Of a stretch of 44,637 nt of DNA, positions 413 through 27,671 are shown piece by piece. Position numbers and translations under genes: made by a program. The stretch lies in contig JAJYCL010000012.1 of NCBI GenBank assembly GCA_021778415.1, forward strand, positions 1-44,637, in the 5' to 3' direction. Numbering within the stretch: the stretch's first letter is position 1; every line of letters begins with the position of its first letter. A model generated the notes under the pieces. The model did no database searches and was not told the DNA's origin. It saw nothing but the letters and a program-made list of their open reading frames with translations. The stretch comes from a bacterium. Its GTDB lineage: Bacteria > Vulcanimicrobiota > Vulcanimicrobiia > Vulcanimicrobiales > Vulcanimicrobiaceae.

Positions 413-487
413 GGCTCGGTAGCTCAGTGGTAGAGCAGGGGACTCATAAGCCCTTGGTCGTAGGTTCAAATCCTACCCGAGTCACCA
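413..487 (+). tRNA. tRNA-Met (anticodon CAT), elongator-like
   Basis: Acceptor GGCTCGG pairs with CCGAGTC (one G-T pair); the anticodon loop is CTCATAA and CCA is encoded at 485-487. A paired first base pair (G1-C72) argues against the initiator tRNA, which normally carries a 1-72 mismatch. A tRNA-Ile2 with lysidine-modified CAT cannot be excluded. Read with a normal 7-base loop, position 31 (A) faces 39 (G), a mismatch at the top of the anticodon stem. Confidence 0.9.
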
Positions 488-493
488 ATGTAC

Positions 494-527
494 GGTTCGG
501 CCGCCGAGAGGCGGTCGAACCATTTTT
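494..527 (+). terminator. intrinsic terminator after tRNA-Met
   Basis: A 12-bp stem (494-505 with 510-521, one G-T pair) with a GAGA loop is followed by ATTTTT. It ends the tRNA-Met transcript 6 bases after the encoded CCA. Confidence 0.85.
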
Positions 528-544
528 GAGGTAGTATCCTAGGT

Positions 545-781
545 ATGTCCACTATTCCGTGCGATTTCTGCCCTCATCCGGTCGATCGGACCCAGATGGA
601 AGAGATCGAAATCTCGCACTACGTTCCGGATAGTTCCGGCGACGATCTGGCCTACGCACGGACGTACTACTTCGGGCATCCCGATTGTGTGCGCAAATTC
701 TACCGTGGTCTTGTCGATCACAAGCTCGATCTGTTTAAGCACATTCCCTCGGCTGGGCCGACGGATGGTCCCAAAGCTTAA
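545..781 (+). CDS. small cysteine/histidine-rich protein, unknown
   Basis: A 78-residue protein that I do not recognise. Near the N-terminus it has a CDFC knuckle (C6, C9) and further on a GHPDC segment (H45, C48), a spacing that could form a CxxC/HxxC zinc site. It contains no hydrophobic segment, so it is probably cytosolic. A GAGG sequence lies upstream of the ATG, but about 13 bases away, so the ribosome binding site is weak. It is flanked tightly by RNA genes: the tRNA-Met terminator ends 17 bases before it and tRNA-Arg(CCG) begins 7 bases after its stop. It may therefore share a transcript with that tRNA and with tadA. The reverse-strand frame covering the same bases looks like a shadow. 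Confidence 0.65.
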   Translation: MSTIPCDFCPHPVDRTQMEEIEISHYVPDSSGDDLAYARTYYFGHPDCVRKFYRGLVDHKLDLFKHIPSAGPTDGPKA

Positions 782-788
782 GTCTCAT

Positions 789-862
789 GCGCCCGTAGCG
801 TAGCTGGATAACGCGCGGCCCTCCGAAGGCTGAGACCGGGGGTTCGAATCCCTCCGGGCGCA
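789..862 (+). tRNA. tRNA-Arg (anticodon CCG)
   Basis: The perfect acceptor stem GCGCCCG/CGGGCGC and the anticodon loop CTCCGAA (CCG) identify a reader of CGG. The T arm is standard. CCA is not encoded. It lies between the small protein gene and tadA with only 7 and 14 bases of spacing, suggesting one transcript. Confidence 0.95.
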
Positions 863-876
863 TATTTTCTCCTGAT

Positions 877-1353
877 ATGATCCAAGATTCACACGCCCGA
901 CCGACCGACGCAGATGTCAGTTATCTGCGCCGAGCCCTTGCGTTGGCCGCGCAAGCGGAAGCTGCCGGCGATGTGCCTATTGGTGCAATCTTCGTCTGCG
1001 GCGACACGAAGATAGAAACGTGGAATGAAAAAGAACATCGGCATGATGCGACGGCGCACGCGGAAATGCTGGCGTTAGGTGAGGCGGCGCGCATGTTGGG
1101 CCGTTGGCGATTTTCCGATGCGACAATGTATATCACTAAAGAGCCGTGTTTGATGTGCGCCGGCGCATTGATTGCTGCGCGTATCGGGCGAGTCGTTTAT
1201 GGCGCGCGCGACCCTAAGGGTGGTGCCGATATCAGTGCGTTTGATGTGCTGCGCAATCCGCGCACCAATCATCGCCCCGAGGTACTCCCCGGCGTTTGCG
1301 AAGAAGAAGCCGCGCAACAGTTACGCTCCTTTTTCCGTTCGCGCCGCACCTAA
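877..1353 (+). CDS. tadA: tRNA adenosine(34) deaminase
   Basis: A 158-residue cytidine/deoxycytidylate-deaminase-fold enzyme. The zinc site is complete: HAE at residues 61-63 (zinc-binding His plus proton-shuttling Glu) and PCLMC at 90-94 (two zinc-binding Cys). TadA converts A34 of tRNA-Arg(ACG) to inosine in the cytosol, an essential step in most bacteria. The length is normal for the family. The N-terminal ATG follows tRNA-Arg(CCG) by 14 bases. The substrate tRNA is encoded in the same window at 212-285, which supports TadA over a guanine or cytosine deaminase of the same fold. Confidence 0.93.
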   Translation: MIQDSHARPTDADVSYLRRALALAAQAEAAGDVPIGAIFVCGDTKIETWNEKEHRHDATAHAEMLALGEAARMLGRWRFSDATMYITKEPCLMCAGALIAARIGRVVYGARDPKGGADISAFDVLRNPRTNHRPEVLPGVCEEEAAQQLRSFFRSRRT

Positions 1354-1382
1354 CTCCCGCAATCCCGCCCCATGTGTGCCTT

Positions 1383-1474
1383 GTCATGCTGAGGAGCGAT
1401 GCAAAGCATCGCGTCTCGAAGCATCCCCGTCATGCTGAGGAGCGATGCAAAGCATCGCGTCTCGAAGCATGACG
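1383..1474. repeat. two direct copies of the GAGGAGCG/CGTCTCG hairpin repeat
   Basis: Two nearly identical 42-base units (1383-1424 and 1429-1470) start with GTCATGCTGAGGAGCG and end with CGCGTCTCGAAGCAT. In each, CGATGC and GCATCG form a perfect 6-bp stem around an AAA loop. They lie between the convergent ends of tadA and the ankyrin gene. Same family as the arrays at 2645, 37757, 41915 and 44587. Confidence 0.9.
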
Positions 1475-1481
1475 GAGCGCA

Positions 1482-2420
1482 CTAATTGTGCAGAGAGATG
1501 CTGATCGAGTAGGATGCGCCGTTGGTTGGACGGTCCGGATGACTCCCTGGGGTGTACTCCGCTCGCACGAAGCCTAATTTCGTATCGCTCTGCACGTTCG
1601 TACACTGCAAAAGACTTTCCAAGAGCTTCTCAGGAATCGGTCCGCGGCCGCTATTGAGATAGATCCTTTGTAAGAGCGGGCGCAGTGTTTTTGCAATAAT
1701 ATCCAAAGGTATGGTCGACATAAACACCTCGGTTTTTAAAAAAATATATCGAGGAAATGTCTTTGCGCCTTCGACTTGATAGGTGTACATAATGACGTCC
1801 CCCGCCTCGCTTCCAAAATCGTGCTTGACGTTGTCGCAGGCATATGTCTTTGGATCGTTCGCAAAGGTTTTCCATGCCGACGATTTCCCAAAACCGATCG
1901 AAGCGGTCGCAGTACAAAACATGCTCGGGTAAAGCTGTGTCAGGACTTTTGCCCCGTGACGTTTGAGGAGTAGTACGACATCGGGGTGGTCATTGTCGAG
2001 AGCGAATTCAATCGGGGTGAATCCGTTTTTATCGTGCGCATTCACGTTTGCCCCGTGGGCGATAAGGATTGCCGCCACTTTCACCTGACCGAAATTGGCA
2101 GCGCGCATAAGCGGCGTATAATGCATAGGATTATACGCTCCGTCGATTGCCGCATGCGCCGCGAGCAGCGCAAGAACGGCCGGGACGCGGCCTTTTGCCG
2201 ATGCCCATTCGAGGGCACTGATCCCACCGGCGTCCCGCGTGTTCGGGTTTGCTCCGTGCCGTAGCAGAGAGCGAACAGCAGCGGTGTCCCCCTTTTCCGC
2301 CGCAAGCACGAGAGCCGGAACGGCTGGGGCAGAGGCCATTGTCGGTAGCGGTACGGTGGTGAAAAAAAATGCGCTCAGCAGCGCGAGGCGGGCGATTTTT
2401 GTTGCGAAGAGCGAATGCAT
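1482..2420 (-). CDS. exported ankyrin-repeat protein
   Basis: The start at 2420 is preceded by AAGGGGG at about 6 bases and opens a clear signal peptide (charged MHSLFATKIAR, hydrophobic core, cleavage near the MASA region). A start 12 codons upstream is possible but less likely. Residues about 35-160 form three to four ankyrin repeats, seen in motifs such as LLRHGANPNTRD and HGANVNAHDKNGFTPIEFA. The C-terminal half (about 150 residues) has no domain I recognise and ends in SISISLHN. Ankyrin repeats bind other proteins; the target here is unknown. It probably works in the cell envelope. The gene runs towards tadA and is divergent from tRNA-Ser(CGA). Confidence 0.85.
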   Translation of the reverse strand: MHSLFATKIARLALLSAFFFTTVPLPTMASAPAVPALVLAAEKGDTAAVRSLLRHGANPNTRDAGGISALEWASAKGRVPAVLALLAAHAAIDGAYNPMHYTPLMRAANFGQVKVAAILIAHGANVNAHDKNGFTPIEFALDNDHPDVVLLLKRHGAKVLTQLYPSMFCTATASIGFGKSSAWKTFANDPKTYACDNVKHDFGSEAGDVIMYTYQVEGAKTFPRYIFLKTEVFMSTIPLDIIAKTLRPLLQRIYLNSGRGPIPEKLLESLLQCTNVQSDTKLGFVRAEYTPGSHPDRPTNGASYSISISLHN

Positions 2421-2513
2421 AGAACCCCCTTGACTCGCACCTTGGAGGGCGGTCAAGGATACCCTCTCGGGCGCTCTTGAGGCTTTGTAGCAGGGAACGT
2501 GCGCTCTTTGCGG

Positions 2514-2519
2514 TAGAAT
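2514..2519 (+). promoter_or_regulatory. possible -10 box of tRNA-Ser(CGA)
   Basis: TAGAAT lies 23 bases before the tRNA 5' end. No convincing -35 box is seen at 16-18 bases upstream. Confidence 0.3.
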
Positions 2520-2542
2520 CGCAATCGCCCAAACGTCACCGC

Positions 2543-2633
2543 GGAGAGGTGGTCGAGTGGTTTAAGGCACCCGCCTCGAAAGCGGACGAGCGTGTTGAGC
2601 GCTCCGAGAGTTCGAATCTCTCCCTCTCCGCCA
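2543..2633 (+). tRNA. tRNA-Ser (anticodon CGA)
   Basis: Acceptor GGAGAGG pairs perfectly with CCTCTCC; discriminator is G and CCA is encoded (2631-2633). The anticodon loop CTCGAAA gives CGA, reading UCG. A long variable arm (GCGTGTTGAGCGC region) marks a class II serine tRNA. Confidence 0.95.
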
Positions 2634-2644
2634 TTTCCTAATCT

Positions 2645-3374
2645 GTCACCCTGAGGAGCGCACGCAGGGCGCGACTCGAAGGGCCGTGAACCAATGTTGC
2701 ACGCTAACGCGTGCTCCGTTTTTATGATGCTTCGCATCGCTCCTCAGCATGACAGCACTTTGTCACCCTGAGGAGCGCACGAAGTGCGCGTCTCGAAGGG
2801 CCGTGGCCGGGCGTAATTGTTGCACGCTAACGCGTGCTTCGTTTTTATGATGCTTCGAGACGCGACGCTTCGCATCGCTCCTCAGCATGACAGAGGCTTT
2901 GTCACCCTGAGGAGCGCACGAAGTGCGCATCTCGAAGGGCGCTCCTCAGCATGACAGAGGCTTTGTCACCCTGAGGAGCGCACGAAGTGCGCGTCTCGAA
3001 GGGCCGTGGACCAATGTTGCACGCTAACGCGTGCTCCGTTTTTATGATGCTTCGAGACGCGATGCTTCGCATCGCTCCTCAGCATGACAGGGCCTTCGCA
3101 TCGCTCCTCAGCATGACAGAGGCTTTGTCACCCTGAGGAGCGCACGCAGTGCGCGTCTCGAAGGGCCGTGGCCGGGCGTAATTGTTGCACGCTTCGCGTG
3201 CTCCGTTTTTATGATGCTTCGAGACGCGATGCTTCGCATCGCTCCTCAGCATGACAGGGCCTTCGCATCGCTCCTCAGCATGACAGGGCCTTCGCATCGC
3301 TCCTCAGCATGACAGGGCCTTCGCATCGCTCCTCGGCATGACAGGGCCTTCGCATCGCTCCTCAGCATGACAGG
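2645..3374. repeat. array of composite hairpin repeats (gene-free region)
   Basis: This gene-free 730-base stretch is built almost entirely from one repeat family. A composite unit has a left arm starting TGTCACCCTGAGGAGCG with stem CGCAC/GTGCG, a middle piece with its own stem GCACGC/GCGTGC, and an inverted right arm ending CGCTCCTCAGCATGACAG with stem CGATGC/GCATCG. Full or partial composites begin near 2645, 2762, 2899, 2965 and 3125. Apparent reading frames here only translate the repeats. No transposase or flanking target duplication is visible. It resembles the mosaic of REP-type elements, not a CRISPR, because there are no unique spacers. Confidence 0.9.
3235..3374. repeat. five tandem copies of a 29-bp unit
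   Basis: Starting at 3235, 3264, 3293, 3322 and 3351, a 29-base unit (CGCATCGCTCCTCAGCATGA plus CAGGGCCTT) repeats head to tail, with one change in the fourth copy (CTCGGCATG) and a shortened fifth. It is the right arm of the composite repeat amplified on its own, probably by slippage or unequal exchange. Confidence 0.93.
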
Positions 3375-3392
3375 GGCTGGAGCGATGGGGCG

Positions 3393-4115
3393 TTATGGCG
3401 TTGGGGATGGGCTGGCGAGTTGTGGATCGGGGGCGGACGTTGGGAAGGCGATATCGCTATAGGTGATATCGGCGATGACTTTAAAGCTGACGAACACGTG
3501 CTCCGTGGCGGAAAAGACGCCGTGCACGATCACCCAATGGCCCTGTATGACTTTGTAATCGAGTGCGATCTCCATATCGCTACTCACGTCGCGCATGACG
3601 ATGCGAGACGGGAGATGCGTTTGCGGATCGACGACGATCTCTTCCGGATAGAAACCCGTCACGCGCGACGTTGGCCCGATGAGAAAATGTTGCAGTGCAT
3701 CGGTTGAATCGGGAGCATAGGTTGGATTCCAAAACGATGCGTAGGGAATCATCACGCTGACGTTTGGATCCGGTGCGGGAATCGGAAAAATAATCGGCGA
3801 TTTGCGCACGACGGTAATATCGATGCGTTTGAGATTCGCGAAGTAACTAAAATCGAATTCCGAGAGTGGATCGAAATATGGAATGATCGGGAAGGCCTGG
3901 CCCGTTCGCGTTGCGCCCGCGGGGAGATCGTGCATGACGGCGACGTTATCGGCCACGCGAACGGCGACGCTGCGATCGACTTCCTGGGTACGTCCTAGCG
4001 ACGGCGCACTGATGTGCGTGCGTTCCGTATACGTCATATAGACCGGCGGATTCGTACTGTAGGCGTTGCTCGTTGCATTGACGAGGAGTGCGAGCGCAAG
4101 ATCTGGTCCGATCAT
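3393..4115 (-). CDS. hypothetical protein, possibly exported
   Basis: A 240-residue protein that I do not recognise. The N-terminus (MIGPDLALALLVNATSNA) is weakly hydrophobic and only marginally signal-peptide-like. The body is rich in beta-forming segments, for example ITVVRKSPIIFPIPAPDP and MEIALDYKVIQGHWVIVHGV. A phrase like PQTHLPSRIVMRD recalls outer-membrane-lipoprotein-sorting or DUF-type proteins that bind lipids, but this is only an impression. The C-terminus is Pro/Ser-rich (SAPDPQLASPSPTP). It is divergent from the M20 amidohydrolase with about 55 bases between starts, so the two probably share a promoter region. Its 3' end abuts the repeat array. Confidence 0.7.
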   Translation of the reverse strand: MIGPDLALALLVNATSNAYSTNPPVYMTYTERTHISAPSLGRTQEVDRSVAVRVADNVAVMHDLPAGATRTGQAFPIIPYFDPLSEFDFSYFANLKRIDITVVRKSPIIFPIPAPDPNVSVMIPYASFWNPTYAPDSTDALQHFLIGPTSRVTGFYPEEIVVDPQTHLPSRIVMRDVSSDMEIALDYKVIQGHWVIVHGVFSATEHVFVSFKVIADITYSDIAFPTSAPDPQLASPSPTP

Positions 4116-4170
4116 CGCGTGGACTCTTCGCGGCAGGGGGTATGCGCACCGCTACGCAACTGCCGATGCT

Positions 4171-5340
4171 ATGCCGTTTCCACATCCCGGTGCTACCCTC
4201 GTTGCCCATGTGAAAGAGTTACGTCGAAGGATTCATCGCCAACCCGAACTTGGCTTTGAAGAGATGCTCACTTCGGCGTTGGTTATCGGCGAACTCGAAC
4301 GACTTGGCATCGCGTACCGCCGAGTAGCGCAAACCGGCGTCGTCGGCGTCATTCGCGGGGGCTTGCCGGGCAAGACGGTCGGCTTGCGCGCCGATATGGA
4401 TGCACTCCCGATCACCGAGCGTAGCGGCGAACCTTTTGCGTCGGAGATACCGGGGAAGATGCATGCCTGCGGTCACGATGCGCATACGGCGATGCTCCTG
4501 GGCGCCGCCGAAGTGTTGCAAACGCACCGCGCCTCCGTCCCGGGAAATGTGGTGTTACTGTTTCAGCCGGCGGAAGAAGGACCGGGTGGTGCAAAACCCA
4601 TGATCGAGCTAGGCGCGCTCGATGATCCATTGGTTGAAGCCGTTGCGATGTTGCACGTCGATGTGCGCTATGAAGCCGGAACGCTCGGCGTTGCCGGCGG
4701 CCCCGTCAATGCCTCCGCCGATGAATTGCGCATCGTTGTGCGTGGCAAAGGTGGCCATGGTGCCTATCCGCACACGGCGATCGATGCGATCCCACCGAGT
4801 GCGGCGATCATTACTGCGTTACAAAACATTGCATCGCGAGAAACCGATCCGCTCAAATCCGTCATCGTCACCATCGGTACCATTGCCGGTGGATATCGTA
4901 ACAATGTCATTGCCGATGAAGTCGTAATGACGGGAACTCTGCGCGCGCATGATCCGCAGGTTCGCAACGAACTAGCTCCTCGCGTGCGGCGCATCGTCGA
5001 AGGCGTTGCAAGCGCGTACAACGTTAAAGCCGAGGTGATGATCGATCACGGCTATCCTCCGGTCATCAATAATGCCGAGCTTGCTGCGCATGTGCGCGCG
5101 TATCTGAAAAGCGAAACTGCGCTGTGCATCATCGAGCCGCCACCGACAATGGGCGCGGAAGACTTCGCGTATTTTGCCGAGCGTGCTCCGGGGCTTCATA
5201 TGCGGCTTGGGGTGCGCAATGAAGCGGCTGGTATTACCGCCTCCGGGCACAGCCCGGAGTTCCGCCTCGATGAGGCTGCTCTGGAATCGGGCGTTCAAGC
5301 GCTCGTTGGGTTTGTTTTCGCGGTGAACCACAATAGCTAG
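4171..5340 (+). CDS. M20 family metallo-amidohydrolase (N-acyl amino acid hydrolase type)
   Basis: A 389-residue M20D-type enzyme. It hydrolyses the amide bond of N-acylated amino acids or similar small amides (hippurate, IAA-amino acid, N-acetyl amino acids); the exact substrate cannot be read from sequence. Visible motifs are GLRADMDALPI at 71-81, HACGHDAHTAM at 98-108 (metal-binding C100 and H102), QPAEEGPGG at 132-140 (general base/metal Glu), the dimerisation-domain GGHGAYPHTAIDAI, and MGAEDFAYF near the C-terminus. No signal peptide, so cytosolic. The frame is open further upstream to 4066, but the conserved region starts with the LVAHVKELRRRIHRQPELGFEE stretch in two parts, so the ATG at 4171 is preferred; no strong ribosome site is seen. 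Confidence 0.9.
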   Translation: MPFPHPGATLVAHVKELRRRIHRQPELGFEEMLTSALVIGELERLGIAYRRVAQTGVVGVIRGGLPGKTVGLRADMDALPITERSGEPFASEIPGKMHACGHDAHTAMLLGAAEVLQTHRASVPGNVVLLFQPAEEGPGGAKPMIELGALDDPLVEAVAMLHVDVRYEAGTLGVAGGPVNASADELRIVVRGKGGHGAYPHTAIDAIPPSAAIITALQNIASRETDPLKSVIVTIGTIAGGYRNNVIADEVVMTGTLRAHDPQVRNELAPRVRRIVEGVASAYNVKAEVMIDHGYPPVINNAELAAHVRAYLKSETALCIIEPPPTMGAEDFAYFAERAPGLHMRLGVRNEAAGITASGHSPEFRLDEAALESGVQALVGFVFAVNHNS

Positions 5341-22426: not shown

Positions 22427-22439
22427 TCGCGCCCGGCAT

Positions 22440-22465
22440 GGTACGTCACGCAAGCGTGACGTACC
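22440..22465. repeat. perfect inverted repeat upstream of the tRNA-Ala pair
   Basis: GGTACGTCACGC and GCGTGACGTACC are perfect 12-base arms around AA. The element sits between the stop of the papain-like lipoprotein gene (22487) and the tRNA-Ala(TGC) gene. On the minus strand no T-run follows it, so it is not a typical intrinsic terminator for the protease gene. It could still be a Rho-independent pause, a processing stem or an operator. Confidence 0.6.
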
Positions 22466-22486
22466 TCGTTCTTTTGTCGGGTCCGG

Positions 22487-24028
22487 TTAAATCGGCGGCA
22501 CAATCTGATAGGCGAGTGCTTCCGTACCCGACGCTCGTGTGCTCCAGAAGCTGTACGGAAGATAGAAGTATCCGTTGATGCCGTGCGTCGTGCCCCAGGA
22601 ATTGAGCACGATGAACGAACCGCCGGCAACGGAATCATCGTAGCCGACGAAGACCATTGCATGGCCGCCGAGTTTACTTCCATCGTATCCGGAATAGACG
22701 GCGTTGGACGCGTTGAGCGTTCCGAGAACGTTGTCCACACCCATCGCCATATAGATCGGATACCCAGCAGCGAGATAGCTTTTTATCGTCCCTACGTTCG
22801 TTCCGAGATTCCAATATTGCCGCACGCGATAGTTCGCAGCGATGCCCATCGTATACGTCGACAAGTAGGAGTACGACGGGCTATCGCCTGCATTCCATGG
22901 CACGACGGAGAGTGGAACGGCGCCGATCGTGCGGAGCGATTCGAGAACCGCGATGAGCGTTGTGCCATCGTCGATTCCGCCGTTGACCGAGCGTTGATTA
23001 TAGGTGAAGCGCGGGCTAAACGTGGTGGCATCGTTGTTGCCGAATTGCCCGGAGCCGGTGAGAACCCATGATGGAATCGATGCGCGCGCCGCTTTTTGCA
23101 TGGCGCTCATGATGGAATAGACGCCGGAGAAGACGGCGCACATATTCGAGTTCGCTTGATTTCCAACGGGCGGAAACGCGGGGCTCAAATTAACGAACGT
23201 GGCCGACATCGGGCGACGCTTCGTTGCGAAGGAACTGATCGGTGGAGGCAGCGGTGGAGCCGTCGGAATCGCCGCGAGTTCATCCGGCGTTGAAATTTGC
23301 GTATCGCCGATGACGGCGCCGTTGGAGGGTTCGGTAAATGGCGTCGTCGATGCGATGGCAACATTTACAGGGTTCACGATGGCTCCGGCGAGGGTGCCGT
23401 TAATCGCGAACTCCGGAATCGACGCGCCCGAATACGAGACAGATACCGACCCGGCCGGCGAGGTGAGCGTCGTGCTCGAAAGGGTCGCCGAGGGATCGCT
23501 TGATGTAAGCGTTATCGGCGTTGAGAACGGCGTGGTGCCGAGAATGCGCCGGCCCTGCCCATCGTAGAGAACGGCATCGATCGTTGTCGTGGCGGAGGCT
23601 CCCGCGGGAAGCTCGATGGGATTTGCCGAGAGCGTCACGGTCGCGGGGGCGCAACCGAAGCAAGCAAAGAGTGCGCCATTTTCGTCATCGGCTTCCGTCG
23701 AAAACGAACCGGTATCCAGCGTTGCGCCGCTTGCGTTTGCGATCGTCACGGCAAGATTGGCATAGGCCGGTGGGGCCGAAACGCTCACCGAGCATGAACC
23801 TGCGGCACAGGATCCGGTGCTGGTCGTCGTGGCAAATCCGTTCGCCGTCACGGAGACGCTTGCCGTGCTTGCCGCTGCGGTCGCCCCACTCACTCCAATC
23901 GTGAGTGGAATCGTGACGTACCCGGCCGTTGCCGAGGTGGTGGGCAGGCTGACGTTACTAGCCGAGCTACATCCGGCGGCAAGCAGTAGTGCTGCACCGA
24001 GGGCGGCGATTTTTCCGAAATGCTTCAT
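22487..24028 (-). CDS. lipoprotein with papain-like (C1) cysteine peptidase domain
   Basis: 513 residues. MKHFGKIAALGAALLLAAGC is a lipoprotein signal with lipid-modified C20. Residues about 35-230 are Ser/Thr/Ala-rich and look like two Ig-like beta domains. From about 285 a C1A-like peptidase begins: PPVGNQANSNMCAVF holds oxyanion Q291 and nucleophile C297, GGHAMVFVGYDD holds H456, and VLNSWGTTHGINGYF holds N476. The canonical CGSCWAF is changed to SNMCAVF, but Gln, Cys, His and Asn are all present, so activity is plausible. There is no obvious inhibitory propeptide. It would be anchored at the cell surface or periplasmic face and act on proteins there. It is divergent from the FkbM gene. 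Confidence 0.87.
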   Translation of the reverse strand: MKHFGKIAALGAALLLAAGCSSASNVSLPTTSATAGYVTIPLTIGVSGATAAASTASVSVTANGFATTTSTGSCAAGSCSVSVSAPPAYANLAVTIANASGATLDTGSFSTEADDENGALFACFGCAPATVTLSANPIELPAGASATTTIDAVLYDGQGRRILGTTPFSTPITLTSSDPSATLSSTTLTSPAGSVSVSYSGASIPEFAINGTLAGAIVNPVNVAIASTTPFTEPSNGAVIGDTQISTPDELAAIPTAPPLPPPISSFATKRRPMSATFVNLSPAFPPVGNQANSNMCAVFSGVYSIMSAMQKAARASIPSWVLTGSGQFGNNDATTFSPRFTYNQRSVNGGIDDGTTLIAVLESLRTIGAVPLSVVPWNAGDSPSYSYLSTYTMGIAANYRVRQYWNLGTNVGTIKSYLAAGYPIYMAMGVDNVLGTLNASNAVYSGYDGSKLGGHAMVFVGYDDSVAGGSFIVLNSWGTTHGINGYFYLPYSFWSTRASGTEALAYQIVPPI

Positions 24029-24128
24029 AGCCGATATGCTTTCTTCCGTGTCAAAGCCGGGGAAATTGTGCTACCTACCTTTGCCTCCACTGGGCGAGTC
24101 GCCTTTCGACGAACTCCATTGGTGAAGA

Positions 24129-25148
24129 ATGAGGTACGTTGCCGTAACGAGTATAGGTCCAAATGCCTTTTCGATTCGTGGTATTTTTCCATTGTCGACG
24201 ATGAGCAAAGCGCAAGGCTCGCGACCATTTTTGTGGCGAGTCGTTTCGAGTGTCGTTTATGCTTGGGTACCGCACTTGCAACCGTTCATGAGGCGCTCGG
24301 GGCTGTCAGGCGTAAAGCGATGGATCTATCGTTGCATCACCGATCCGTACACGAATTTCCGGCTCGAAAATTTTGAAGTCGAATCCGTCTTTGGAGCGCG
24401 GTTCGAAGGGACGTTGGGCGGTCTCATTCAGCGCCGGGTTTTTCATTTCGGTGTCTTCGAGCCGAATCTCACCGATTGGATCAAACAATCACTACGACCC
24501 GGTGACACGTTTTTGGATGTTGGGGCCAACGTTGGATATTTTACGCTGTTAGCCTCACGTGTCGTTGGCCCGACGGGATCAGTCGTTGCGGTTGAAGCTG
24601 CACCGTCTACTTTCTCTACGCTCGTGAAGAACTGCCAGCGCAATTCCTGTACGAACGTCCGCTCACTCAATCTTGCCGCATTCGATCGCGAGACGGAATT
24701 GCCGCTGTTTCACATCCCGAGCGAAGAGAACACCGGAGGAGCGAGTGTCGTTCTCGCTGTTGGCCCGTGCGAAACTGTCGTGCAGGCGAAACCGCTAGCG
24801 ACCGTGCTTTCCGAATCCGAAATAGGTTCCATGCGAATCGTGAAAATTGATGTTGAAGGTGCAGAAGTGGAAGCGGTGCGCGGCCTCATTCCCGTCATTT
24901 CCCGGATGCCTGAGCACGTCGAAATCGTTGTTGAATCTCTGCCGGAGAACTATGACGCGATTGCCGGCATGATGGAAGAACTCGAGTTCCATACCTATAC
25001 GTTAGAGAATCCGATGGAGCCATTCATTCCTGTCCACGGTTCACGTCGCCCACTGCGCCATCGCGGCGCGTTTTCGCAAGCGGGCTTAACGATGGATCAT
25101 GGTGTCGCCTATTTCGTTTTTTCTCGCCAAGATCGCGAAGAATTGTAA
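24129..25148 (+). CDS. FkbM family methyltransferase
   Basis: Up to 339 residues. The SAM-binding region reads TFLDVGANVGYFTLLASRVV at about residues 127-146, followed by GSVVAVEAAPSTF, and the FkbM signature MRIVKIDVEGAEVEAVRGL lies near residue 237. FkbM enzymes O-methylate hydroxyl groups on polyketides, sugars and glycolipids; the acceptor here is unknown. No glycosyltransferase neighbours point to one. The start is uncertain: ATG 24129 has a GGTGAA only 2 bases upstream, while ATG 24201 (MSKAQGSRPF) would drop 24 poorly typical residues. The gene ends 8 bases before the truncated tRNA-Ile fragment. Confidence 0.87.
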   Translation: MRYVAVTSIGPNAFSIRGIFPLSTMSKAQGSRPFLWRVVSSVVYAWVPHLQPFMRRSGLSGVKRWIYRCITDPYTNFRLENFEVESVFGARFEGTLGGLIQRRVFHFGVFEPNLTDWIKQSLRPGDTFLDVGANVGYFTLLASRVVGPTGSVVAVEAAPSTFSTLVKNCQRNSCTNVRSLNLAAFDRETELPLFHIPSEENTGGASVVLAVGPCETVVQAKPLATVLSESEIGSMRIVKIDVEGAEVEAVRGLIPVISRMPEHVEIVVESLPENYDAIAGMMEELEFHTYTLENPMEPFIPVHGSRRPLRHRGAFSQAGLTMDHGVAYFVFSRQDREEL

Positions 25149-25156
25149 GCCGCGTC

Positions 25157-25197
25157 GGTGGGCCGTCCTGGGATCGAACCGGGACCTCATGCGTATC
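25157..25197 (-). pseudogene. truncated tRNA-Ile fragment (3' half, att-like scar)
   Basis: These 41 bases match the 3' half of the intact tRNA-Ile(GAT) at 26283-26359, from the GAT anticodon to the acceptor 3' strand (shared GGATCGAACC and GGGACCTCATGC), with two substitutions and one missing base. The D arm and 5' acceptor strand are absent, so it cannot be a working tRNA. Same orientation as the intact gene, on its 3' side, as expected for a displaced 3' end after site-specific integration. Confidence 0.85.
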
Positions 25198-25198
25198 G

Positions 25199-25244
25199 AT
25201 GCCGGAAATTTCTTCGGGCGAATGCCGGAACTTTCTTCAGGCGA
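25199..25244. repeat. two tandem 23-bp repeats beside the tRNA fragment
   Basis: ATGCCGGAAATTTCTTCGGG+CGA (25199-25221) is followed directly by a second copy with two changes (25222-25244). It lies between the tRNA-Ile fragment and the first islet gene, where recombinase arm sites or a duplicated regulatory site could be. Confidence 0.75.
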
Positions 25245-25274
25245 ACGAACGTAGGCTGCTAGGAGGATCTGCTT

Positions 25275-25721
25275 TTGAAACGATGGTTTGTTTTTTTTGC
25301 CGGCATCGCGTTTGTCGCAGGCGCGATGATGGCCCCTGCGCTAGCGGTCAACTACGAGCCGAGCAACGGTGTCATTCTGCTTCGGAATTGGACAAAGGAG
25401 TTCGTGAAAATCACGGAGATCCGGCACATGGTCGGTTCGTTACCAGGTATCGTGATCGACCGGGACCTCACCATCCCCCCGGATGGGAAGTTTATCTACG
25501 CGAACCGATGCTGCTACGCTGCCGGCTCCGTCTATCGCATCACCTATCTGAATCCGCCCGGAGCGGAGCATAAGACCGGTTCGATTCTGATCACCATGGG
25601 ATACGGAGCTCTCGGCTGCCAAATGTTCAGCGCGCCCCTAGCCGCCTCCGATGAGGTCGAGTTCAGAACGAAAAACAGCGAAATTCATGCCGTCGACAGA
25701 GGGCGGTTGTGTCAAAAATGA
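25275..25721 (+). CDS. secreted protein, islet paralogue 1
   Basis: 148 residues from a TTG start with AGGAGG at 25261-25266, 8 bases upstream, so the start is well supported. A signal peptide (MKRWFVFFAGIAFVAGAMMA, cleavage near PALA) precedes a compact domain. It shares with the next gene EIRHMVGSLPGIVID, then DLT.PP, then YANRCCYAAGS.YRIT. The adjacent Cys pair in NRCCYAAG and two later cysteines (LGC, RLC) suggest disulfides. No family recognised, and no enzyme motif seen. It lies inside the tRNA-Ile islet and is followed after 11 bases by its paralogue. Confidence 0.8.
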   Translation: MKRWFVFFAGIAFVAGAMMAPALAVNYEPSNGVILLRNWTKEFVKITEIRHMVGSLPGIVIDRDLTIPPDGKFIYANRCCYAAGSVYRITYLNPPGAEHKTGSILITMGYGALGCQMFSAPLAASDEVEFRTKNSEIHAVDRGRLCQK

Positions 25722-25732
25722 GGATCACTGCA

Positions 25733-26164
25733 ATGAAACGTCTCGCCCTCTTTTGTGCGGGCCTCGCGCTCGTGTTGGGGCTCGCACACGCACCGACGCT
25801 CGCGTACACCCGTGAAAACGGCGTCATCATTCTCCGGAATCGCACCAGCGCGCCTGTGAAGATCGTCGAAATCCGGCATATGGTGGGCTCGCTGCCGGGG
25901 ATCGTGATCGATCACGATCTGACCGTCCCGCCCCACAAGACCGTCTACGCAAATCGATGCTGCTACGCGGCTGGATCCGATTACCGCATCACTGCCGAAG
26001 GCTCCGGCCAGAAGGTCTCGCATGTCGTTCAGGTCCGTATGAAGGGATGCCCGATTGGCAACGGCCAATTTGGTGGAATCGATTATGCGAGTTACGTCGT
26101 CGAGCTCATGACGACCGGAAAAGGCGAGCTCGTGTTCATCGACAAGGGGCCTGCCTGCGAATAA
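25733..26164 (+). CDS. secreted protein, islet paralogue 2
   Basis: 143 residues from ATG 25733, with TGAGGA about 9 bases upstream; an in-frame start 24 bases earlier would overlap gene 1. The signal peptide is MKRLALFCAGLALVLGLAHA with cleavage near TLAYT. The mature part repeats the core of paralogue 1 (GVIILRN, EIRHMVGSLPGIVID, YANRCCYAAGSDYRIT) but diverges after it, with four other cysteine positions roughly kept. Tandem duplication followed by divergence is clear. Function unknown; exported, probably disulfide-bonded. A bidirectional terminator follows 86 bases downstream. Confidence 0.8.
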   Translation: MKRLALFCAGLALVLGLAHAPTLAYTRENGVIILRNRTSAPVKIVEIRHMVGSLPGIVIDHDLTVPPHKTVYANRCCYAAGSDYRITAEGSGQKVSHVVQVRMKGCPIGNGQFGGIDYASYVVELMTTGKGELVFIDKGPACE

Positions 26165-26249
26165 TCCCAAGGCCTCCCTTGAGCGGTTAGTCCTCGCCGG
26201 ATGTGAGGGCTAGCCGCTCGAGAAGTCTGCCATAGTCGACAGCTTCAAA

Positions 26250-26279
26250 AAAAAGACCCCGATAAAATCGGGGTTTTTT
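26250..26279. terminator. bidirectional intrinsic terminator
   Basis: CCCCGAT (26257-26263) pairs with ATCGGGG (26267-26273) around AAA, with an A-run upstream and a T-run downstream. It can end the two-gene islet transcript on the plus strand and the tRNA-Ile transcript on the minus strand. Confidence 0.85.
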
Positions 26280-26282
26280 ATA

Positions 26283-26359
26283 TGGTGGGCCATCCTGGGA
26301 TCGAACCAGGGACCTCATGCTTATCAAGCATGCGCTCTAACCAGCTGAGCTAATGGCCC
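26283..26359 (-). tRNA. tRNA-Ile (anticodon GAT)
   Basis: Minus strand: acceptor GGGCCAT/ATGGCCC perfect, discriminator A, encoded CCA. The anticodon loop TTGATAA gives GAT, reading AUC/AUU. It is intact and is the attachment-type site of the islet: its 3' half is duplicated at 25157-25197. Confidence 0.96.
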
Positions 26360-26425: not shown

Positions 26426-26668
26426 CTAGATGAGGCCGATCCATTTTTGCATGTAGGCATCCTCGCTTTTAATTTGGGCGAGCATGAGGGCTTCGAGGGC
26501 GTCGGATTCTCGCTGCATCTCGGCTCGCTCCTCGGTTTGGAAATCGAAGGCCTGGTGTTGGACGGCGAGGTTGGCCTCCTCGGCAGCCTGAGCCGCCGAG
26601 GAAGCGGGATCCGGCGGCGCACTTGCGGCCGCCGAAGCGGTCCGGCTCACGGATTCGATGCGGCTCAT
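26426..26668 (-). CDS. short helical protein, possible secretion substrate
   Basis: 80 residues, ATG overlapping the stop of the previous gene (ATGA). The N-terminus is Ser/Ala-rich and flexible; from about residue 28 it is one long charged helix (QTEERAEMQRESDALEALML). It ends AQIKSEDAYMQKWIGLI. The last segment is similar to the end of the neighbouring 109-residue protein (AQTKSDNAITKKFIESI), suggesting a shared C-terminal motif. No signal peptide, no Cys. Size and shape recall rod or needle subunits of specialised secretion systems, but I recognise no such family. Confidence 0.6.
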   Translation of the reverse strand: MSRIESVSRTASAAASAPPDPASSAAQAAEEANLAVQHQAFDFQTEERAEMQRESDALEALMLAQIKSEDAYMQKWIGLI

Positions 26669-26994
26669 GAGCTGATCGATTCGATGAACTTCTTGGTGAT
26701 CGCATTGTCTGATTTCGTCTGCGCCATCTGGACATCGCGCAGGGTATTCACCTCGCGCATCTTTTCGCTGCGCTCATCGATCATCTCGTTAAAGACGGTG
26801 GATTGCATCTGCATCGATTCTTGGTGGCGGATCTGCTCGGCATACATGGCGGTTTGAAACGCCTCGTCTTGGGCGTTGAGGCCGCCCATGGCCCCGAGTT
26901 GGGCTCCGTTGCCGGCGGCGGAGAAGAGGCCGCCGACGACGCTACCGGCGATCATCGGGGCCGCGGATTCGAGCAGGGCGGGGAGAAAAGCCAT
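26665..26994 (-). CDS. short helical protein with hydrophobic N-terminus
   Basis: 109 residues, with AAGGAG 7 bases before the ATG, the best ribosome site in this cluster. The N-terminal 35 residues are hydrophobic and Gly/Ala-rich (AAPMIAGSVVGGLFSAAGNG), then a Met/Gln-rich helix (YAEQIRHQESMQMQSTVFNE) leads to a final helix ending AQTKSDNAITKKFIESISS, similar to the end of the next gene. Lies 23 bases downstream of the lytic transglycosylase. Function unknown; could be a small membrane or exported structural protein. Confidence 0.62.
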   Translation of the reverse strand: MAFLPALLESAAPMIAGSVVGGLFSAAGNGAQLGAMGGLNAQDEAFQTAMYAEQIRHQESMQMQSTVFNEMIDERSEKMREVNTLRDVQMAQTKSDNAITKKFIESISS

Positions 26995-27017
26995 GGTGGA
27001 CTCCTTTTCGGTGGTGC

Positions 27018-27671
27018 TTAGGCGGCGTCGGGATCGATGACGGAGCTATAGTCGGGGCCTTGTTGGGCCGACGCGCTCGGTGGCGGTGAAATCGGCAGTG
27101 GCGGGGTATACGGCATGAGTGAGGGCTGGCAGAGCGCGGCCCCGGCGGCAGCGTTGCGCAGGGTCCCCACATCGGCCACGGTCGCCCGATCGTCGCCGTG
27201 GGCGATTTGCCGATAGTGCCGAAGGACGGAATCGGCGTAGCCGAGGGTTTCGCCGTCTCCCCAGGTGGTGCGGGTTCCCGTCGCAGTCGGGCTTCCGGCG
27301 TTATAAGCACTCAGCGCCTTATGTAGATCGCCGCCGTAGCGATTGAGGTTGGAGCGAATCATCCGAGCGGCATAATCCGCGTTGGCCTGGGGATCGAGGG
27401 CGGAGGCGGTGCGGGCAAAGCTGTGCCAGCGATCGTCGATCTGGAAGATGCCGTGCCCGTGGCCGCCGTCTCCGATGATATTGCGCCCGGCGTTGTTGCC
27501 CGGGCCGCCCGTCTCTTGCGCCGCCACCGCGGCGAGCAAATCGGGATCGAGGCCTTGGGCCTTTGCGGCGGTGGCAATTTCCGTCGAATAGGCCACGCCG
27601 CGGCCGTTGAGTTGGGCCGCGGCGGCGTGAATAGAGGCTGGAAGTATCATTGCCGCCGTCCACTGCGACAT
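27018..27671 (-). CDS. lytic transglycosylase (SLT-type) domain protein
   Basis: 217 residues from ATG 27671 (an ATG at 27650 is also possible); the longer open frame upstream is antisense to the DUF177 gene. The lysozyme-fold domain spans about 25-165: catalytic-type Glu in LLAAVAAQETGGPGNN, then NIIGDGGHGHGIFQIDDRWH and HKALSAYNAGSPTATG. It would cut peptidoglycan glycan strands. The N-terminus has only a weakly hydrophobic, non-standard export signal (AAMILPASIHAAAAQ), and the C-terminal 50 residues are Pro/Ser-rich. Transglycosylases of this size commonly open the wall for secretion systems, pili or phage. It is first in an operon with two short helical proteins. Confidence 0.8.
   Translation of the reverse strand: MSQWTAAMILPASIHAAAAQLNGRGVAYSTEIATAAKAQGLDPDLLAAVAAQETGGPGNNAGRNIIGDGGHGHGIFQIDDRWHSFARTASALDPQANADYAARMIRSNLNRYGGDLHKALSAYNAGSPTATGTRTTWGDGETLGYADSVLRHYRQIAHGDDRATVADVGTLRNAAAGAALCQPSLMPYTPPLPISPPPSASAQQGPDYSSVIDPDAA

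What the first reader, a model, noticed from the sequence alone, without database searches (positions are those of the whole stretch)
25157..26359. Integrase-free islet at the 3' end of tRNA-Ile
The 3' half of tRNA-Ile, from the anticodon on, is duplicated 1.1 kb away on the correct side and strand. This is the footprint of site-specific integration, yet no recombinase lies between. It could be a decayed element or a small cargo unit moved by a recombinase elsewhere.
Basis: partly seen in the sequence, partly recalled or inferred. Interest (0 to 1): 0.65.

Follow-up and report, generated by a model that had tools for sequence, protein, structure and literature searches.

The report
Decayed integrase-free islet at tRNA-Ile
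A 1.1-kilobase piece of DNA once inserted itself behind a tRNA gene of a little-known bacterium, no longer carries the enzyme that moved it, and still holds two intact genes for small exported proteins; it is an ordinary kind of genomic fossil in an unusual host.

Summary
tRNA-Ile(GAU) (26283-26359, -) has an eroded copy of its 3' part, positions 35-76, at 25157-25197 on the correct strand and side (39 of 41 letters match, one base deleted). Between them lie 1,085 bp with two paralogous signal-peptide genes and no trace of a recombinase. The host is a Ca. Eremiobacterota relative. tRNA-Ile is an integration hotspot of its family: I count at least 16 fragment sites in 13 of 99 genomes, breaking at the anticodon, including a 22.5-kb island with an integrase beside the tRNA (G011). 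Of six genomes with tRNA and fragment on one contig, five have no integrase between. The window's genome has a second such site, tRNA-Ala(CGC), with an integrase stump. Related cargo sits at tRNA-Asn in G036, and in G118 in a 2.06-kb insert exactly behind tRNA-Ile, with empty sites in sister genomes. Best reading: a decayed remnant of a tyrosine-integrase island (eroded fragment, no paired arm repeats) whose cargo stays under purifying selection. Delivery in trans as a non-autonomous unit is not excluded. A known kind of thing (integrase-less tRNA island, CIME-like); the recurring cargo is of modest interest.

The parts
26283..26359 (-). tRNA-Ile(GAU), intact, CCA encoded; the restored target gene
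   Evidence: ARAGORN; Rfam RF00005 71.9 bits
25157..25197 (-). Displaced, eroded 3' fragment of tRNA-Ile (positions 35-76), the distal end of the islet
25198..26282 (.). The islet, 1,085 bp, 56.4% G+C (window 57.7%), no recombinase trace
25275..25721 (+). Cargo gene car1 (my label), 148 aa, TTG start, signal peptide by eye, family of exported proteins
   Evidence: dN/dS 0.19-0.28 for the pair against the G036 copies
25733..26164 (+). Cargo gene car2 (my label), 143 aa, paralogue of car1 (52% identical)
   Evidence: predicted beta-sandwich, pLDDT 75.7
25199..25244 (+). Two 23-bp direct repeats next to the fragment, upstream of car1; probably part of the car promoter region, since a related stretch lies upstream of car1 in G036
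   Evidence: (D10), alignment; function inferred
26247..26282 (-). Terminator-like hairpin and T run directly behind tRNA-Ile, on the islet side
   Evidence: read in sequence
26181..26219 (+). Inverted repeat behind car2, possible operon terminator without a T run
   Evidence: read by eye
24129..25148 (+). FkbM-type methyltransferase gene just outside the fragment, opposite orientation to its relatives in G116 and G118; flank, not islet
   Evidence: Pfam PF05050 1.8e-13

Best explanation
The islet is the remnant of an element that a tyrosine integrase inserted into tRNA-Ile, with strand exchange in the anticodon loop. The element supplied a new 3' half with its own terminator, which keeps the tRNA working, and the old 3' half was pushed 1.1 kb downstream, where it has eroded. 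The integrase and any left-end arm sites were then deleted, leaving two small exported-protein genes that are still under purifying selection. Shown: the duplicated 3' end, its breakpoint, the absence of an integrase, intact cargo, and integrase-bearing and empty versions of the site in relatives. Inferred: which enzyme did it, that its gene once lay inside the element, and that the islet can no longer be excised.
For: Same anticodon-region breakpoint in the 15 fragment sites lined up, from 13 genomes. G011 has a 428-aa integrase beside tRNA-Ile and a fragment 22.5 kb away. Integrases also lie near tRNA-Ile fragments in G045 and G098, and a weak sub-cutoff one in G010. In the window's genome the tRNA-Ala(CGC) site shows decay in progress: an integrase C-terminal stump behind the tRNA and two fragments. 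Arm-like direct repeats occur at both ends in G011, in the integrase-free G009 islet and in that tRNA-Ala unit, but not in the window islet (1 shared 8-mer, 2.65 expected). The window fragment is among the most eroded and lacks the final A and the terminator. dN/dS 0.19-0.28 for car1 and car2.
Against: No integrase remnant at all in the islet, so loss rather than never having had one is inferred. Three islets with different cargo in three genera have about the same small size, 1.02-1.10 kb, without an integrase, which decay alone does not predict. Sister genomes of the same genus are not held, so this insertion itself has no empty-site control.
Confidence: 0.68

Rival explanations
1. The islet arrived as a small non-autonomous unit, with att sites and cargo only, moved in trans by an integrase of another element (CIME-like or hitcher-like), and never carried its own integrase.
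For: Integrase-free islets of 1.02-1.10 kb with different cargo in G000, G009 and G058; G009 keeps paired GGGGTCA repeats at both ends without an integrase; the same cargo family in integrase-free units at tRNA-Asn (G036) and tRNA-Ile (G118); the G000 and G058 fragments share the variant GATACGCATGAGG.
Against: The window islet shows no shared arm repeats and an eroded fragment. No integrase with matching arm repeats was found for G009; only loci already held were looked at, among them the 3.4-kb locus L163. Broken integrases beside cargo (tRNA-Ala unit, G036:C4) show that decay does occur.
Confidence: 0.24
2. The fragment is a duplication without site-specific recombination, for instance a slipped or unequal exchange such as may underlie the tandem tRNA 3' repeats seen elsewhere in this family.
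For: Tandem short units bearing tRNA 3' ends exist in the family: tRNA-Ile of G055 and tRNA-Gln of G047.
Against: The window copy is single, 1.1 kb away, with unrelated DNA between; its breakpoint equals that of integrase-bearing islands.
Confidence: 0.05
3. The element was larger: much of the stretch from tRNA-Ile to tRNA-Ala (22427-26282), including the FkbM and peptidase-like genes, was accreted in several events, and the fragment is only an inner border.
For: The interval from tRNA-Ile to tRNA-Ala(TGC) is as short as 14 and 23 bp in G037 and G021 and 3.86 kb here. FkbM genes recur in this interval in G116, G118 and on contig G036:C15.
Against: No second fragment was found nearer to tRNA-Ala. 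This would add to the main reading, not replace it.
Confidence: 0.15

Closest known systems
tRNA-targeted integrative islands of the Islander type (PMC4383910, passages read)
   Same: Intact tRNA, displaced 3' fragment on the right side and strand, anticodon-centred crossover (site type A)
   Different: No integrase and only 1.1 kb; Islander rejects candidates without an integrase and those under 2 kb, so such islets are filtered out
CIMEs, cis-mobilizable elements (PMC5704250, passages read)
   Same: Integration and transfer genes missing, att sites left, at a site where other elements integrate
   Different: Descent from an ICE or IME is unknown; the distal att site is eroded; no adjoining functional element was seen
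Dehalococcoides ssrA genomic islands without integration module (PMC3146451, passages read)
   Same: 15 such islands, delimited by the 3' end of the target RNA gene, are reported there next to islands with the module
   Different: Target is ssrA and the enzyme a serine recombinase; other cargo
rtT tandem repeats behind E. coli tyrT (recalled, from no call; one search found no paper on it)
   Same: Repeats of a tRNA 3' end behind the tRNA gene
   Different: Tandem short units; resembles G055 and G047, not the window

Membership tests
tRNA-targeted integrative island | Intact tRNA plus displaced 3' fragment, same orientation, 3' side | tested here: met
tRNA-targeted integrative island | Crossover at one of the known tRNA sublocations | tested here: met
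   Homology starts at the anticodon, as in the other sites of the family
tRNA-targeted integrative island | Integrase gene inside | tested here: not met
   so it is at most a remnant of one
CIME | Integration and transfer genes lost | tested here: met
   Apart from antisense frames only two small exported-protein genes lie between the ends
CIME | attL and attR retained in working state | tested here: inconclusive
   Fragment has a deletion and mismatches and lacks the last A; no shared arm repeats; activity needs an experiment
CIME | Derived from an ICE or IME and mobilised in cis after accretion | not testable with these tools
   No conjugation genes are left and no neighbouring active element is held
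rtT-like tandem tRNA 3' repeats | Several short near-identical units in tandem | tested here: not met
   One fragment only in the window

The most novel reading that the evidence does not exclude
In this family of Eremiobacterota, tRNA 3' ends host a pool of tiny integrase-free cassettes, bounded by tRNA borders, that repeatedly carry one family of exported beta-sandwich proteins and are moved in trans by integrases of resident islands. The car1-car2 pair would be such a cassette, seen at tRNA-Ile here and at tRNA-Asn in G036.
Probability: 0.12. Interest if true: 0.55.

Novelty: new member of a known kind. Interest (0 to 1): 0.25.

Why it matters
It shows that uncultured Eremiobacterota have ordinary tRNA integration hotspots, and that islets too small and too bare for standard island finders recur there. 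The exported protein family may be a real accessory trait of these bacteria: it recurs near tRNA genes and stays under purifying selection after the mobile machinery is gone. If the units are moved in trans, they would give a simple test case for how little an integrative element needs.

Tried and rejected
Integrase remnant hidden in the islet: none found at E<=0.1. The 23-bp repeats beside the fragment as integrase arm sites: not preferred, since they lie at one end only and related sequence precedes car1 in G036; not excluded. A tRNA-Ile fragment at the right edge of the G118 insert: a 19-nt local match, but 26 of 2,000 shuffles score as high and the empty-site sequence aligns there too, so only suggestive. 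Function of the cargo: no Pfam, PHROG or NCBIfam match for car1 or car2. For car2 there was no plasmid or phage match and no Foldseek match at E<=0.001; VIA-align shows beta folds such as the PepT2 extracellular domain and transthyretin at Z 9-12, which names a fold, not a function. A scan of viral contigs with the five-sequence car alignment gave no confirmed relative. A T7-like phage origin, suggested by the SLT and gp14-like genes at 26668-27656: rejected for the islet, because they lie on the 5' side of tRNA-Ile and are present in most relatives (SLT in 52, gp14-like in 56 of 67 loci with at least 1.6 kb of 5' flank). Contig G036:C15 (fragment plus an FkbM gene 87% identical to that of G116) may be a contaminant of that genome; its fragment stays in the count of 16, but I draw nothing from it about G036. 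Literature: the searches showed no description of such islets in Eremiobacterota in that library; this is no proof of absence in print.

The printed match lists were cut by the tool, so fragment counts are lower bounds. The printed table was cut; one search repeated the fragment scan on all 77 loci. In one search the middle one of the three G055 fragments was left out. In reading I disregarded five reading-frame pairs with third-position identity 0.78-0.93 and the few smaller antisense frames (one at 0.548, one at 0.524), which overlap real genes on the other strand.

Full report
The window is contig 44, positions 1-44637, of a 2.59-Mb genome in 61 contigs. The one named relative found by the cargo search is a Candidatus Eremiobacterota assembly; its contig has the same length as contig 30 of G036, a genome of the same family as the window's. 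No other genome of the window's own genus appeared among the 98.

tRNA-Ile(GAU) lies at 26283-26359 on the - strand. Positions 35-76 of it recur at 25157-25197 on the same strand, downstream of its 3' end. The copy has lost one T-stem base, carries two mismatches, and lacks the final A of CCA and the terminator that follows most other fragments. The match scores 69 against at most 29 in 2,000 shuffles. When all 46 tRNA genes of the genome were scanned with the flanks in hand, only two had such fragments: this one and tRNA-Ala(CGC).

The islet is 1,085 bp long and holds two genes read towards the tRNA, 25275-25721 and 25733-26164, paralogous at 52% identity, with signal peptides by eye. I call them car1 and car2. 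They match nothing in Pfam, PHROGs or NCBIfam. They belong to a family of exported proteins of this bacterial family with a CCYAAGS-like motif. Matches to car2 were found in 8 of 98 genomes, at 16 loci. The predicted car2 structure (pLDDT 75.7) is a beta fold. No recombinase is present: the integrases collected here give no hit to the islet at E<=0.1, while the same search finds the integrase stump of the tRNA-Ala unit.

The site is a hotspot. A search with tRNA-Ile in 99 genomes of the family matched 94. In its printed list, which was cut, I count 16 fragments of the 3' part in 13 genomes, starting at tRNA positions 26-35. Fifteen of them are lined up. In six genomes tRNA and fragment lie on one contig: G000, G055, G009, G058, G032 and G011. 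Only G011 has integrases between them, one directly beside the tRNA, on a 22.5-kb island. Integrases also lie near fragments on broken contigs of G045 and G098, with a weak sub-cutoff match in G010. Of 77 tRNA-Ile loci in hand, 5 show a fragment within the fetched stretch; that of G011 lies further away. The 5' side of tRNA-Ile is conserved (DUF177 gene in 55 of 67 loci with at least 1.6 kb of flank). The 3' side ranges from 14 bp to tRNA-Ala(TGC) in G037 and 23 bp in G021 to several kilobases.

An empty-site comparison was possible in another genus. In G118, 2.06 kb lie exactly between the 3' end of tRNA-Ile and the sequence that follows tRNA-Ile, from base 15 on, in G047 (90% identical) and G115 (84%); G023, G116 and G056 align less closely. 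The insert carries a 197-aa member of the same exported protein family, and no integrase was found in it. Its right edge has only a doubtful tRNA remnant. So an integrase-free insertion behind tRNA-Ile, with related cargo, exists in another genus too.

The cargo moves between sites. In G036 the car1-car2 pair, plus a third gene, lies behind tRNA-Asn, in the last of three units delimited by 21-nt copies of the tRNA-Asn 3' end. DNA identity with the window islet is 72% over 947 bp and ends close to the operon. Third-codon-position identity between the two genomes is 0.565 for car1 and 0.593 for car2; for the other sense genes compared it is 0.32-0.52. This suggests exchange after the genera parted, but on few genes, and a short flanking gene reaches 0.51. 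dN/dS is 0.19-0.28. Of the 16 car loci, five have a tRNA within 1.5 kb, all with the cargo on the 3' side; chance gives about 0.001 by a simple binomial, or 0.007 if the two tRNA-Glu/Gln cases count once. In G036:C4 cargo genes lie beside a broken integrase gene.

The ends of the elements help to judge age. Short direct repeats shared by both ends, as integrase arm sites would be, are found in G011, in the integrase-free G009 islet (GGGGTCA, two at each end) and in the first tRNA-Ala unit of the window's genome (GTCCGCC, two at each end). The window islet has none beyond chance. Together with the eroded fragment this makes it one of the more decayed cases. The second tRNA-Ala unit (3.1 kb) also lacks an integrase and shared repeats.

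Mechanism. Shown: the duplication, its borders, the missing recombinase, and integrase-bearing, integrase-free and empty versions of the site in relatives. Inferred: a tyrosine integrase exchanged strands in the anticodon loop; the element's own 3' half and terminator restored the tRNA; the integrase end was later deleted; the cargo was kept by selection. I give about 0.93 to site-specific integration as such, 0.68 to the decay reading in full and 0.24 to arrival as a unit moved in trans. FkbM is in the opposite orientation to that in G116 and G118, so an inversion with a breakpoint at the fragment might explain the lost end and terminator; this is a guess.

Compared with what is known: the signature is that of tRNA islands as used by Islander, which demands an integrase and at least 2 kb (PMC4383910, passages). 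Integrase-less leftovers with att sites are called CIMEs (PMC5704250, passages). In Dehalococcoides, 15 ssrA islands without integration modules are reported (PMC3146451, passages). A recent review treats elements that need helpers broadly (PMC11389934, passages). The window islet is a new member of a known kind; whether its att sites still work was not tested. The only unusual aspect is the recurrence of one exported protein family in such islets.

Noticed in passing
window 26429-27656: Conserved trio on the 5' side of tRNA-Ile: SLT transglycosylase, a short gene with a weak T7 gp14-like match, and an 80-aa gene, next to DUF177 and fab-type genes (fab names recalled); SLT in 52 and gp14-like in 56 of 67 loci. 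It may be a domesticated phage or secretion module.
   Followed up: partly
L182 (G000:C9:7000-17500), 431-4760: Second islet array in the window's genome: tRNA-Ala(CGC) followed by two units (1.0 and 3.1 kb) with 46-47 nt fragments; the first has an integrase stump and paired arm-like repeats.
   Followed up: partly
L054 (G055:C222), 1819-2330: tRNA-Ile followed by three tandem near-identical units of about 140 bp, each ending in its 3' part (one run of N in the assembly); resembles the recalled rtT repeats of E. coli.
   Followed up: no
L202 (G047:C8), tRNA-Gln at 2600-2671 (-): tRNA-Gln(TTG) followed by two 54-55 nt copies of its 3' part within 325 bp.
   Followed up: no
L023, 5111-7054: tRNA-Asn of G036 followed by two units of about 130-150 bp that hold a dispersed-looking CTGAGC...GTCGAAGG sequence and by a 1.6-kb cargo unit, each closed by 21 nt of the tRNA 3' end; a different sublocation (T arm) from the tRNA-Ile sites.
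   Followed up: partly
L055 (G009:C2), islet behind tRNA-Ile: The G009 islet contains an inverted 118-bp piece, 82% identical, of the gene region on the 5' side of the same tRNA, and paired GGGGTCA repeats at both ends without an integrase.
   Followed up: partly
L065 (G036:C15), 611-2900: A 3.3-kb contig with a tRNA-Ile fragment, an FkbM gene 87% identical to that of G116 of another genus, and tRNA-Ala genes arranged as in that genus: contamination or recent transfer.
   Followed up: partly
window 22487-24028: A gene for a secreted protein that looks like a papain-type peptidase lies between FkbM and tRNA-Ala; my reading of the translation, not searched.
   Followed up: no
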